Assembly: GCF_900215355.1 (NCBI RefSeq)
Contig: NZ_OBEA01000005.1
Location: 248,001-312,000, forward strand
Reading direction: 5' to 3'
DNA length: 64,000 bases
From: Pseudooceanicola antarcticus
Lineage (GTDB): Bacteria > Pseudomonadota > Alphaproteobacteria > Rhodobacterales > Rhodobacteraceae
A program made the position numbers and the translations under genes. Position 1 is the stretch's first letter. Each line of letters opens with the position of its first letter. Positions 6,993 through 46,643 of the stretch are shown here, in pieces. The notes under the pieces are model-generated. The model made no database searches, was not told the DNA's origin, and saw only the letters and a program-made list of their open reading frames with translations.

Positions 6993-8153
6993 TTAGGCCG
7001 GCATGCGCTTCTCGACGATCTCGGCCCACCAGGAACAGCCCGCGGGGATCGCCTCGTCGTTGAAGTTGTACTCGGGGTTGTGGACATCGGCGCTGTCGCC
7101 GTTGCCGACCAGGATATAGGCACCGGGGCGCTCTTCCAGCATGTAGGCGAAATCTTCGCCGCCCATGGTGATCGCCGCCTCGACGCAATCGCCCGAGACC
7201 GACTTGGCCACTTCGGCGGCGAACTCGGTCTGCTCGGGGGTGTTGACCATGGCCGGGTAGCCCGGCAGCCATTCGATTTCGGCCTTGGCGCCGAAGGCCG
7301 CGGCGGCGGAGGGCACGATGGCCTTCAGGCGCTCTTCGGCCAGCGCACGGCTTTCCTTCGACATGGTGCGGATGGTGCCGCGCAGGGTGACATGGGCCGG
7401 GATCACGTTGAAGGCGGTCGAGGAGCTCTCGAAGCTGGTCACCGAGACCACCACCTGCTCGACCGGATCGGCGTTGCGGCTGGCGATGGACTGCAGCGCG
7501 GTGACCACCTGCGAGGCGGCGACGATCGGGTCGATGGTCTGCTGCGGCTTGGCGGCGTGACCGCCACGGCCGACGACCTTGATCTCGAACTGGTCGGTGG
7601 CGGCGAAGAAGGCGCCCGAGCGGATGCCGAAGCTGCCCACGGGCATGCCAGGCCAGTTGTGCATGCCATAGACTTCCTGGATGCCGAAGCGCTCCATCAT
7701 GCCGTCGTCGCACATCTCCTTGCCGCCGCCGCCGCCTTCTTCGGCGGGCTGGAAGATGACCACGGCGGTGCCGTCGAAGTTGCGCGTCTCGGCCAGGTAC
7801 TTGGCGGCGCCCAGAAGCATCGCCGTATGGCCGTCATGGCCGCAGGCATGCATGGCGCCCGGCGTCTTCGAGGCATAGTCGAGGCCCGTCGCCTCGAGGA
7901 TCGGCAGCGCATCCATGTCGGCGCGTAGACCCAGCACCTTGCCCGAGGTATTGGTCTTGCCCTTGATCACGCCGACGACGCCGGTGCGGCCCAGGCCGGT
8001 GACGATCTCGTCGCAGCCAAACTCCTTCAGCTTCTCGGCCACCAGGGCAGAGGTCCGGTGGGTCTCGAAGAGGATCTCGGGGTTCTCGTGCAGATCGCGG
8101 CGCCAGGCGGTGATCTCTTCCTGCATCTCGGCAAGGCGGTTCTTGATAGGCAT
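6993..8153 (-). CDS. M20-family amidohydrolase (hippurate hydrolase/aminoacylase-like)
   Basis: A 386-residue di-metal M20D hydrolase that would cleave N-acyl amino acids or similar amides in the cytoplasm. Metal-site motifs are MHACGHDGHTAMLLGAA, the catalytic Glu pair in QPAEEGGGGGKEM, MHNWPG, and a C-terminal His before NPEYNFND. The lid domain is in the middle. AAGGAG lies 6 nt before the ATG. It is a tandem paralogue of the next gene upstream, with the same length and a 20-bp gap, and is last in a leftward group with argE-like and ABC ATPase genes. The true substrate is unknown. Confidence 0.9.
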   Translation of the reverse strand: MPIKNRLAEMQEEITAWRRDLHENPEILFETHRTSALVAEKLKEFGCDEIVTGLGRTGVVGVIKGKTNTSGKVLGLRADMDALPILEATGLDYASKTPGAMHACGHDGHTAMLLGAAKYLAETRNFDGTAVVIFQPAEEGGGGGKEMCDDGMMERFGIQEVYGMHNWPGMPVGSFGIRSGAFFAATDQFEIKVVGRGGHAAKPQQTIDPIVAASQVVTALQSIASRNADPVEQVVVSVTSFESSSTAFNVIPAHVTLRGTIRTMSKESRALAEERLKAIVPSAAAAFGAKAEIEWLPGYPAMVNTPEQTEFAAEVAKSVSGDCVEAAITMGGEDFAYMLEERPGAYILVGNGDSADVHNPEYNFNDEAIPAGCSWWAEIVEKRMPA

Positions 8154-44182: not shown

Positions 44183-44399
44183 CTCGGGTCTGCCTCCTAC
44201 GCCGTCCCGGCCTTTCGAGCCGGTGTTGCAAGCCTTCTAGGACAAAGCGCAGGGCAAAAAAAGCCCTGCCATGTCGATGGTTTGGCGGATCGTGCCGCCC
44301 TGGGCCGCGGGCTACGACCATCTGGCCGGTTGCGAGGCAAAGGCAGATCGGCTGAGATCGGGCAAGGCAATCCGGCATATTACCGATGGAGGAACGCCC

Positions 44400-46643
44400 G
44401 TGGCGTATTCCTGGAGACCGCAGGACGCCGGCACCGAGGCCCATGGGGCGACAGACACCCCAGGCACTGCGGACAGGCTACATGACGATGTGATCGGCCG
44501 GCTTTACGATGTCGCCCTTGATCCCCTGCGGCTGGCAGACCTGCTGGATGACTGGGAGCATCTGAACCGCCCCCTGCGCCGGGCTCTCGACCGGGCCATG
44601 GCCGGCGGAGAAGACGCCTCTGGCCATCCCGACGGCGATTTCGGCTCGCTCCCCGACAGTCCCCGCGACGCGGAGACCCTAGCCAGCCCGGACGCCACCT
44701 TGCGGCAGGAGATGCGGCGCGGCGGGGCGCTTGATTTCACCGATCATTTCCAGCGCGTGACGCGGCTGCTCGAGCAGACCAGCGCCGCCCATGTGCTGCG
44801 CCCCGAAGAGACCGAGTTGCGCCGTTTCGCCCGCACCGCCGCCTTCGCCGTGGGGTCCGATCTGCGGCTCTCGGCGGCCAACGAGGCCGCCCGCCACGGG
44901 CTGGGGGTGAAGCGCGGCGACCCGCTGGACAGCCTCCCGCTGGAGGTGCCGCACCTTGAAGCCCTGCGCGGCCGCCTGCGCCGCATGTTGAGCGCCGCCG
45001 CCGATCCGGTACCGGAACGCGCCCGCCGTCCCGCCGCCCGCCCCGGCGGCGAAGCGGTGCTGCGGCTGCGGCTTGCGGGCAGCGGGCAGCTCTTCCTGGC
45101 GCAGCTGGCGCTCAACCGGCCCGGCGGCGGCCGGTCGCCCTTCGTTCTGGTGGTCACCTCGCAGCTGCGCTGGCCCGAGGCGCTGACAGAGACCCTGCGC
45201 GATGCCTACAAGCTGACCCGCGCCGAGGCGCAGATCCTGCGCAGCCTCTCCGAGGCCCGCCCGCTGCGCGACATCGCCGAAGAACGCGGCCGTTCGGTCG
45301 AGACCGTGCGCGCCCAGATCAAGGCAATCCTGGCCAAGACAGAGACGCGCTCGCAGGGCGAATTGCTGCGCCTCGCGCTTTCGGTGAGCGAGCTGGTGCC
45401 CGCGCTTCCCGGCCCAGTCGGTGGCCCTATCGGCGCTCGTCCGGCGGGCGGGGACACCCCCAGGGGCCTTGTCGTGGCGGCGGCACCCGCGCCTGCCAAT
45501 CCCGCACGCAGGTCCGGAAACGCCGCCCCGATCGGGGCAACGCGTCCGCGTATGCCGTCGCAGGGCAAGCCCCTTCGGGCGCCGCATGGTCAGCCCGGCA
45601 CCCCGCTGACGGGCCGCGAGGCCACGCCGATGGTCACCATCGGGCCGCTGGCCAATGACCCCGCCCCGGCGGTGCCGACCCCTTCCGGCGGGGGCGGCTC
45701 GGGGATGGTGCGCTTCAGCCATGCCGGCGGGCTCCTGCCCCTGCGCCCCTACCGCAGCCTCAGCCGTCCCGGCGGGCGGCGCATGGAATACCTGGTGCTG
45801 GGCGATTCGCAGGGGCGCGCGATGCTCTGGACCCACGGCACCTATGGCCAGTGCCGCTGGCCCGCCGCGCTGGAGGCCCAGGTGGAGGCCCAAGGCCTCT
45901 GCCTCCTGGTGCCGATCCGCGCGGGTTTCGGCGGCTCGGACCCTGCCCCGGCGGGATGCGACCGCGCAAGGCTCGCCGCCGAGGACATGCTGGCCCTGCT
46001 GGAGCATCACCACGCCCGCCAGGTGCCGGTGCTGGCATTCGGGGACGATCTGCACAGCGCCTGCCTGCTGGCCGCCACGGCGCCCGAACGCGACTCTGCT
46101 CTGATCGGGGTCTCGTCCAGCCTGCCCATCTACCGGGCCGAGGATTACGACAGCATGGGCCGCTGGCACCGTTTCCTGCTGGGCGGGGCGCGCTACACGC
46201 CCGAGCTTTTCCCCTTCATGATGGACACCGTCAGCGCCATGGCCAAACGCATGGGCGGGCTGGAGTTCCTCGCCACGCTCTTTGCACAATCCGCCGCCGA
46301 CAGCGCCACGATTGCCCAGCCAGAGTGCCGCGCCGCGCTGCTCAGCGGCACCGAGATCGCGCTGGATGGCAGCGGGCACTTCCTGCCCGCCCTCGCCGGA
46401 GAGATCGCCGCCTCGGCCCGCGGCGACTGGCGCGCCGACCTGGAGGCGCTGAAAGGCAAGCTGCCGATCCATGTCATGCAGGGTGGCCAGAGCCTGCGCC
46501 AGCCCGCCAGCCTGCGCGCCGCCGCGCGCCGGACCTTCCCCTGGATCGCCTTCCGCGAAATCGCCGAAGGCGGAGAGCTGCTGCATCTGCAGGCGGGCGC
46601 GGAGCTGTTGGAGCTGGCCTCGGGCTTCTGCCTAAAGCGATAA
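44400..46643 (+). CDS. LuxR-type HTH regulator fused to an alpha/beta-hydrolase-like domain
   Basis: A 747-residue protein starting at a GTG with TGGAGGAA just upstream. Residues 1-260 hold an unassigned region with a PAS/GAF-like look (TAAFAVGSDLRLSAANEAAR at ~147). Residues ~262-330 form a LuxR HTH (KLTRAEAQILRSLSEARPLR; SVETVRAQIKAILAK). A Pro/Ala/Gly-rich linker (335-450) joins it to an alpha/beta-hydrolase fold (455-747) with oxyanion-type THG at 478-480. The triad looks lost. The nucleophile elbow reads FGDDLHS (Asp550), the acid position MQGGQSL (Ser698) and the His position EGGELLHL (Glu726). This suggests a ligand-binding pseudo-hydrolase controlling the HTH. No target is known. Confidence 0.8.
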   Translation: MAYSWRPQDAGTEAHGATDTPGTADRLHDDVIGRLYDVALDPLRLADLLDDWEHLNRPLRRALDRAMAGGEDASGHPDGDFGSLPDSPRDAETLASPDATLRQEMRRGGALDFTDHFQRVTRLLEQTSAAHVLRPEETELRRFARTAAFAVGSDLRLSAANEAARHGLGVKRGDPLDSLPLEVPHLEALRGRLRRMLSAAADPVPERARRPAARPGGEAVLRLRLAGSGQLFLAQLALNRPGGGRSPFVLVVTSQLRWPEALTETLRDAYKLTRAEAQILRSLSEARPLRDIAEERGRSVETVRAQIKAILAKTETRSQGELLRLALSVSELVPALPGPVGGPIGARPAGGDTPRGLVVAAAPAPANPARRSGNAAPIGATRPRMPSQGKPLRAPHGQPGTPLTGREATPMVTIGPLANDPAPAVPTPSGGGGSGMVRFSHAGGLLPLRPYRSLSRPGGRRMEYLVLGDSQGRAMLWTHGTYGQCRWPAALEAQVEAQGLCLLVPIRAGFGGSDPAPAGCDRARLAAEDMLALLEHHHARQVPVLAFGDDLHSACLLAATAPERDSALIGVSSSLPIYRAEDYDSMGRWHRFLLGGARYTPELFPFMMDTVSAMAKRMGGLEFLATLFAQSAADSATIAQPECRAALLSGTEIALDGSGHFLPALAGEIAASARGDWRADLEALKGKLPIHVMQGGQSLRQPASLRAAARRTFPWIAFREIAEGGELLHLQAGAELLELASGFCLKR

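What the first reader, a model, noticed from the sequence alone, without database searches (positions are those of the whole stretch)
44400..46643. LuxR-type regulator carrying an alpha/beta-hydrolase domain with an apparently dead catalytic triad
The C-terminal ~290 residues look like an alpha/beta-hydrolase, yet the three positions expected to hold Ser, Asp and His read Asp550 (FGDDLHS), Ser698 (MQGGQSL) and Glu726 (EGGELLHL). The oxyanion-type THG is retained. An HTH at ~262-330 sits in the middle of the chain, joined by a ~115-residue Pro/Ala linker. Known precedents (gibberellin receptor GID1, and the active but signalling hydrolases D14 and RsbQ) show this fold can sense small molecules. 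The inference is a one-component regulator that binds an ester, lactone or acyl ligand without turning it over. An Asp nucleophile as in epoxide hydrolases is a weaker alternative, undermined by the missing His.
Basis: partly seen in the sequence, partly recalled or inferred. Interest (0 to 1): 0.8.

Follow-up and report, generated by a model that had tools for sequence, protein, structure and literature searches.

The report
Gene regulator with dead hydrolase domain
A bacterium of the Rhodobacter group carries a DNA-binding regulator fused to an enzyme-shaped domain that lacks its catalytic residues; many relatives share the loss, so an enzyme may have been turned into a sensor.

Summary
The ORF (44400-46643, 747 aa) is real: a PAS-like region, a LuxR helix-turn-helix, a long Pro/Ala linker and a C-terminal alpha/beta-hydrolase fold. 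Family profiles against PDB chains confirm the fold; the window's own model is low-confidence. The catalytic triad is dead, but one residue was probably misassigned. Gly548 more likely sits at the nucleophile position, with Asp550 two residues on, where active enzymes have Gly; Ser698 and Glu726 replace acid and His. Deadness is a family trait: 2 of 83 aligned fused domains keep nucleophile, acid and His, against 26 of 30 stand-alone hydrolase rows. Asp550 is in 45 of 45 rows of the window's tree group and 0 of 37 outside. In this group the lid is well conserved and the elbow poorly, the reverse of two small sets of active enzymes. Best explanation: a one-component regulator whose pseudo-hydrolase reads a ligand. 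Ligand, targets and activity are untested. Fusions with intact triads occur in relatives.

The parts
44388..44392 (+). ribosome-binding-site-like GGAGG before the GTG start
   Evidence: sequence; aligned stretch in L004 and L003
44400..46643 (+). gene: PAS-like region, LuxR HTH, linker, pseudo alpha/beta-hydrolase (747 aa)
44478..45164 (+). N-terminal helical and PAS-like region (residues 27-255)
   Evidence: PAS_4 in 8 of 30 and PAS in 1 of 30 A1 members; weak PAS_4 in the window protein, E 0.018; model of this part too poor to use
45183..45389 (+). LuxR-type HTH (residues 262-330)
   Evidence: GerE at 272-326; 29 of 30 A1 members
45402..45752 (+). Pro/Ala-rich linker (residues about 335-451)
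   Evidence: 118 aa against a median of 24 over 82 relatives, 114 in L135; about 115 codons with a frame change in L004; dN/dS 0.50
45753..46631 (+). alpha/beta-hydrolase fold domain (residues 452-744)
45831..45839 (+). Thr478-His479-Gly480, oxyanion-type motif; HG kept in 5 of 46 fused domains with Asp550
45918..45920 (+). Arg507, present in 83 of 83 fused domains and 8 of 30 stand-alone rows
46041..46043 (+). Gly548, most likely equivalent of the nucleophile
   Evidence: against: 86, 87
46047..46049 (+). Asp550, probably two residues after the nucleophile position; invariant in A1 (30 of 30) and in the tree group (45 of 45)
46116..46379 (+). lid (cap) region, residues 573-660, highly conserved in clade members of other genera
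   Evidence: missing in the draft fragment L160
46491..46493 (+). Ser698 at the catalytic acid position
46575..46577 (+). Glu726 at the catalytic His position
44249..44269 (.). inverted repeat (7-nt arms, 7-nt A spacer) between clcA and this gene; possible operator, unproven; also scored as a terminator-like site on the minus strand
   Evidence: partly kept in L003 and L004
42500..44182 (-). clcA-like chloride channel gene, divergent neighbour
   Evidence: Voltage_CLC E 5e-81; on this side of the regulator gene in 18 of 21 loci examined

Best explanation
A one-component transcription regulator of a family in which an alpha/beta-hydrolase was fused behind a PAS-LuxR regulator and lost catalysis. 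Shown by sequence: the architecture; the replaced nucleophile, acid and His; the family-wide loss of His; purifying selection on the pseudo-hydrolase; a strongly conserved lid in clade members of other genera. Inferred: the pocket under the lid binds a small molecule without turning it over, the change is passed to the HTH, and DNA binding changes. Candidate contacts are Arg507 (83 of 83 fused domains), Arg591 (73 of 83) and Asp634 (77 of 83), and the clade-specific Asp550. Targets are unknown; its own promoter and divergent clcA are the first to test. The confidence is for 'non-catalytic small-molecule sensor'; 'non-catalytic' alone I hold at about 0.9. It was lowered from 0.6 after one search showed a close relative's draft fragment without the lid.
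For: Fold. Dead triad: Gly548, Ser698, Glu726. Family-wide: nucleophile, acid and His together in 2 of 83 fused domains against 26 of 30 stand-alone rows (the 4 control misses are 3 gapped rows and 1 acid change; one control protein is counted twice). His column in the 46 fused domains with Asp550: Q 32, S 6, E 4, D, L, A, I one each, H none. Conservation: lid 0.76 and elbow 0.51 in 27 clade members of other genera; 0.67 and 0.89 in 5, and 0.80 and 0.89 in 7, active orthologues. dN/dS against L004: domain 0.31, lid 0.21, HTH 0.11. One genomic place: next to clcA and, on the other side, the recN-like gene in 18 of 21 loci. Intact-triad fusions in relatives, so the domain probably came from a working hydrolase: L067, L069, L194, L197, L207, L208 (read by eye).
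Against: No ligand, pocket, activity or DNA target was tested. The model has mean pLDDT 55.7 from two sequences and its lid is the worst part. In the window's own genus the contrast between lid (0.60) and elbow (0.51) is weak (15 rows), and in the sister clade too (0.60, 0.55; 17 rows). Between window and L004 the elbow itself is not loose (dN/dS 0.15, 18 codons). The nucleophile column drifts in the genus (G, D, S, Q, H, N). The draft fragment L160 of a close relative runs in frame from about residue 548 to about 633 and lacks the lid (deletion or assembly error unknown). Two direct profile comparisons put Asp550 on the Ser.
Confidence: 0.57

Rival explanations
1. The pseudo-hydrolase is a protein-contact or dimerisation module, as in NDRG-type non-enzymatic hydrolase folds, and any signal is sensed by the PAS-like region.
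For: Whole triad replaced, as reported for NDRG3 (PMC7022630, passages). A PAS-like region is present. Two of 20 A2 members match Pfam Ndr.
Against: The lid, which covers the pocket, is strongly conserved in 27 clade members of other genera. Arg507 is in 83 of 83 fused domains. Ndr is not among the 12 families listed for A1.
Confidence: 0.27
2. Asp550 is a nucleophile after all and forms a covalent ester that is not released because His is missing, a natural counterpart of an engineered covalent-trap dehalogenase.
For: Direct profile comparisons align Asp550 with the Ser. Asp550 is invariant in A1 and in the tree group. Nine of the 46 fused domains with Asp550 also have Asp at the true nucleophile column. 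The trap analogy is recalled, not from a call.
Against: That register needs a 2-residue gap on each side. Asp550 lies 11 after a helix anchor (33 of 33 found among 46 rows) and 12 before a Pro (42 of 42 found), active nucleophiles 9 (19 of 22) and 14 (21 of 21). A1-A2 and A2-A5 chain without gaps through Met to Ser. The model starts the helix at Asp550. The sister clade has Met or Leu at the nucleophile column.
Confidence: 0.06
3. The domain is decaying and has no function.
For: Many positions invariant in clade members of other genera are changed in the window protein; Pfam does not recognise the domain; the fragment L160 lacks the lid; L004 changes frame in the linker.
Against: dN/dS against L004 is 0.31 for the domain and 0.21 for the lid; Arg507 and Asp550 are kept.
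Confidence: 0.07

Closest known systems
Fusions in public records, e.g. Ruegeria sp. TM1040 WP_011536845.1 ('alpha/beta fold hydrolase') and Aliiroseovarius sp. M344 WP_260519347.1 ('LuxR C-terminal-related transcriptional regulator')
   Same: LuxR HTH followed by the hydrolase fold
   Different: The Ruegeria protein keeps Asp, Asp and His; the Aliiroseovarius one has the window-type site (GSDS, DP, GQ)
GID1 gibberellin receptor
   Same: Hydrolase fold with lid, no catalytic His, thought to come from an enzyme (PMC3531792, passages)
   Different: GID1 keeps Ser and Asp to hold its ligand; here those positions are Gly548 and Ser698, and the domain is fused to an HTH
NDRG3 and NDRG2
   Same: Triad replaced in a hydrolase fold (PMC7022630, passages)
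   Different: Human proteins with a blocked substrate path; Pfam Ndr is not listed for A1
RsbQ and D14/DAD2
   Same: Hydrolase folds in signalling
   Different: DAD2 keeps a full triad and is active; RsbQ's triad is recalled
Haloalkane dehalogenases and epoxide hydrolases
   Same: Fold; profile matches to 6f9o and 5bov
   Different: In 8 of 30 stand-alone control rows an Asp sits at the column of Gly548; that these 8 are such enzymes is my reading of the GxD motif

Membership tests
LuxR (GerE) regulators | GerE-type HTH | tested here: met
   E 0.0061 in the window protein, below the curated cut-off; 29 of 30 A1 members at E<=0.01; profile A1 hits HTH response-regulator chains such as 4ldz and 7ve4
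LuxR (GerE) regulators | DNA binding | not testable with these tools
   needs the protein
alpha/beta-hydrolase fold | fold | tested here: met
   the window protein alone has no Pfam match, model pLDDT 55.7
active alpha/beta-hydrolases | Ser/Asp nucleophile at the elbow | tested here: inconclusive
   Gly548, so not met; Asp550 by the register
active alpha/beta-hydrolases | catalytic His | tested here: not met
   Glu726; His in 0 of 46 fused domains with Asp550, in 27 of 30 controls with 3 gaps
active alpha/beta-hydrolases | catalytic acid at its usual place | tested here: not met
   Ser698 in the window protein; Asp in 40 of 46
haloalkane dehalogenase / epoxide hydrolase | Asp nucleophile in GxD at the elbow | tested here: inconclusive
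   most evidence puts Asp550 two residues late; searches do not
GID1-type receptors | His lost, Ser and Asp kept for ligand contact | tested here: not met
   Ser and Asp positions are Gly548 (or Asp550) and Ser698
GID1-type receptors | ligand-dependent signalling | not testable with these tools
   needs binding assays
NDRG family | match to Pfam Ndr | tested here: not met
   not among the 12 families listed for the 30 A1 members; 2 of 20 A2 members match

The most novel reading that the evidence does not exclude
A bacterial counterpart of the plant gibberellin receptor: a family of one-component regulators in which a fused hydrolase became a receptor, while relatives of the same architecture still carry complete triads. 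In the window's clade the old nucleophile elbow has been rebuilt around an invariant Asp (with two or more acidic residues at 547-551 in 13 of 16 members of the genus), so the pocket may read a cationic or metal-bound ligand instead of an ester.
Probability: 0.25. Interest if true: 0.8.

Novelty: new variant of a known kind. Interest (0 to 1): 0.6.

Why it matters
How an enzyme turns into a receptor is, to my knowledge, understood in few cases. Here one architecture holds members with full triads (Ser-Asp-His, Asp-Asp-His) and members with none, so the steps could be tested side by side. It also warns that some proteins named 'alpha/beta (fold) hydrolase' in public records carry a LuxR HTH, and two of those viewed (L209, L210) lack the catalytic His by alignment.

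Tried and rejected
Considered and rejected or ranked low: Asp550 as an epoxide-hydrolase-like nucleophile (register, missing His); domain decay (dN/dS); chance resemblance to the fold (profile E-values); upstream ATG 44271 as the start (in L003 the matching upstream DNA is in another frame and the gene's own frame has a stop). Led nowhere: viral-contig scan with A1 found no relative; the model of the N-terminal half was too poor to use (mean pLDDT 44.3); the promoter scan found no sigma-70-like site; paper searches listed nothing on this architecture (listings only). The FAD-oxidase neighbour gives no ligand: it is absent at the window locus, and the genome has six matches to it elsewhere, the best 51% identical.

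Rows dropped or counted twice; one truncated fusion, five stand-alone rows (duplicate or too short), L160, and repeated copies were left out; one control protein stayed in twice (L058 and L060) and L070 and L071 are near-identical. The 30 control rows are 26 and 4, and several are orthologues of each other. L004 counts among the 83 fused domains although its HTH lies in another frame; its HTH match and linker length of 137 are wrong, the true distance is about 115 codons. One search left out L004. Of the 24 rows, three repeat earlier ones. The group of 46 was picked by Asp550 itself, so its Asp550 count proves nothing; the independent counts are 30 of 30 in A1, 44 of 44 by locus list and the tree. 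The printed label says 26, the list held 27 rows.

Full report
What is there. The ORF 44400-46643 encodes 747 residues. GTG 44400 has GGAGG in front, and in L003 the frame has a stop shortly upstream; the upstream DNA is itself similar among window, L003 and L004, so the start is likely, not certain. Pfam finds in the window protein only a weak GerE HTH (272-326, E 0.0061) and a weak PAS_4 (E 0.018). The family is clearer: of 30 proteins in alignment A1 (window included), 29 match GerE, 21 Abhydrolase_1, 8 PAS_4 and 1 PAS. Profile A1 matches PDB chain 9wlv at 1.3e-17, a putative epoxide hydrolase (5bov) at 3.4e-11 and a haloalkane dehalogenase (6f9o) at 3.4e-9. A model of the domain from window plus L004 has mean pLDDT 55.7; Foldseek still finds 830 PDB chains at E<=0.001, the first with TM about 0.54 and rmsd 10. 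The fold is sound, the model's details are not.

Which residues stand at the triad. Acid and His positions are Ser698 and Glu726. The nucleophile is harder. Alignments to PDB enzymes (gapless at the elbow in four of the five printed, one-residue insert before it in the fifth) and to ordinary hydrolases of the same genome, L058 and L059, put the nucleophile on Gly548. The model ends strand 5 at residue 547 and starts the helix at 550, as expected if 548 is the elbow. Asp550 lies 11 residues after a helix anchor (33 of 33 found among 46 rows) and 12 before the next Pro (42 of 42 found), while active nucleophiles lie 9 (19 of 22) and 14 (21 of 21). Against this, direct profile-profile comparisons with seven active hydrolases put Asp550 on the Ser, with a gap of two on each side. 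Going through the sister clade removes the gaps: A1 to A2 places Gly548 on Met (E 4e-102) and A2 to A5 places that Met on Ser. I hold Gly548 at about 0.85. Either way the His is missing.

Family. With P0001, 56 of 295 genomes of the family match at E<=1e-10; with A2, 72 of 295 at E<=1e-40; 17 of 22 in the genus at 1e-20; 12 of 385 in the class with A1 at 1e-30; 29 of 299 in the phylum with A2 at 1e-30. The window's genome is counted in each, and not every match was checked for both domains. Among 83 fused domains left after removing copies, nucleophile column: G 32, D 13, M 13, L 8, S 4, others 13; acid: D 70, others 13; His column: Q 57, S 8, H 5, E 4, others 9. Nucleophile, acid and His together occur in 2 of 83 (L067, L069); in 30 stand-alone rows in 26, the misses being 3 gapped rows and one acid change. 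Among 24 further fused domains, three of them repeats, I read full triads in L191 (a repeat of L067), L194, L197, L207 and L208. So loss of the triad is the rule in the sample from the window's family, but not in all such fusions.

The window's clade. A tree of 82 rows puts the 45 rows with Asp at column 550 in one group (support 96, quick tree, long branches flagged, column 550 not left out of the tree) and none outside. L004, left out of the tree, has it too. Among these 46, His at 726 is in none and HG at 479-480 in 5. In the genus, 13 of 16 members have two or more acidic residues at 547-551. Ser698 with Glu726 is shared by L004 and the fragment L160; L135 has Asn and Glu. Arg507 is in 83 of 83 fused domains and 8 of 30 stand-alone rows.

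Selection. In 27 clade members of other genera the commonest residue has mean frequency 0.76 in the lid, 0.70 in the HTH and 0.51 at the elbow; the short acid strand (12 columns) reaches 0.77. In two small sets of active orthologues the elbow (0.89) is above the lid (0.67, n 5; 0.80, n 7), but these sets are more alike overall (0.60 and 0.75 identity against 0.53). In the window's genus the contrast is weak (lid 0.60, elbow 0.51, n 15), as in the sister clade (0.60, 0.55, n 17). dN/dS between window and L004 is 0.31 for the domain, 0.21 for the lid, 0.15 for the elbow (18 codons), 0.11 for the HTH, 0.50 for the linker; clcA 0.22, recN 0.09. The domain is kept by selection, less tightly than the HTH. 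One result points the other way: the draft fragment L160, from the genome that also holds L136, runs in frame from about residue 548 to about 633, without lid or Asp550 region.

Place in the genome. The gene lies between a divergent clcA-like gene (Voltage_CLC) and convergent genes that I read from their translations as recN, bamD and lpxC (no family search was made for these). Of 21 loci (window and 20 that I chose from the clade), 18 have it between the clcA and recN homologues. In 9 of those 18 a gene of one cluster lies directly upstream on the same strand; its four scanned members are FAD-linked oxidases. It is absent here.

How it may work. Shown: architecture, replaced triad, family-wide loss, selection. 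Inferred: a ligand under the lid, transmission to the HTH, control of its own gene or clcA. No call bears on the ligand. A protein-contact role, as for NDRG proteins (PMC7022630, passages), is the main rival. GID1 (PMC3531792, passages) is the closest in working principle but keeps Ser and Asp.

Novelty. Searches of the held papers for this architecture listed nothing relevant; papers outside the library were not seen. Public plasmid records hold 37 matches to a sister-clade member; of the 15 rows listed, 13 are named alpha/beta (fold) hydrolase and 2 'LuxR C-terminal-related transcriptional regulator'. The parts are known; their combination with family-wide loss of the triad I did not find described. 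I rate it a new variant of a known kind.

Noticed in passing
L166, L167, L169, L171, L172, L174, L176, L177, L179: A gene of one cluster lies directly upstream of the regulator on the same strand in 9 of 18 syntenic loci; its four scanned members (L166, L167, L171, L174) are FAD-linked oxidases. Absent in the window.
   Followed up: partly
window 44237-44269: CTTCTAGGACAAAG and an inverted repeat around an A run lie in the intergenic regions of window, L003 and L004; the first also in L163. Its core TAGGACAAA has no exact match in 18 other loci, L165-L182.
   Followed up: partly
L160 1-582: In a draft genome of the same genus the domain runs in frame from about residue 548 to about 633 of the window protein, without the lid. 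Deletion or assembly error unknown.
   Followed up: partly
L004 about 7068-7101: The reading frame changes inside the linker, so HTH and hydrolase parts lie in two frames in this metagenome-assembled genome; real or assembly error unknown.
   Followed up: partly
L208, L210, L212: Distant fused relatives on plasmids lie near divergent VWA-domain and hypothetical genes in 3 of 5 regions viewed, and near a Hint-domain gene in L211: possible targets in other clades.
   Followed up: no
L055 (own genome): A 625-aa open frame with a similar architecture has Ser and Asp but Arg at the His position.
   Followed up: no
L064/L074: Two fused regulators in tandem in one genome (G416).
   Followed up: no
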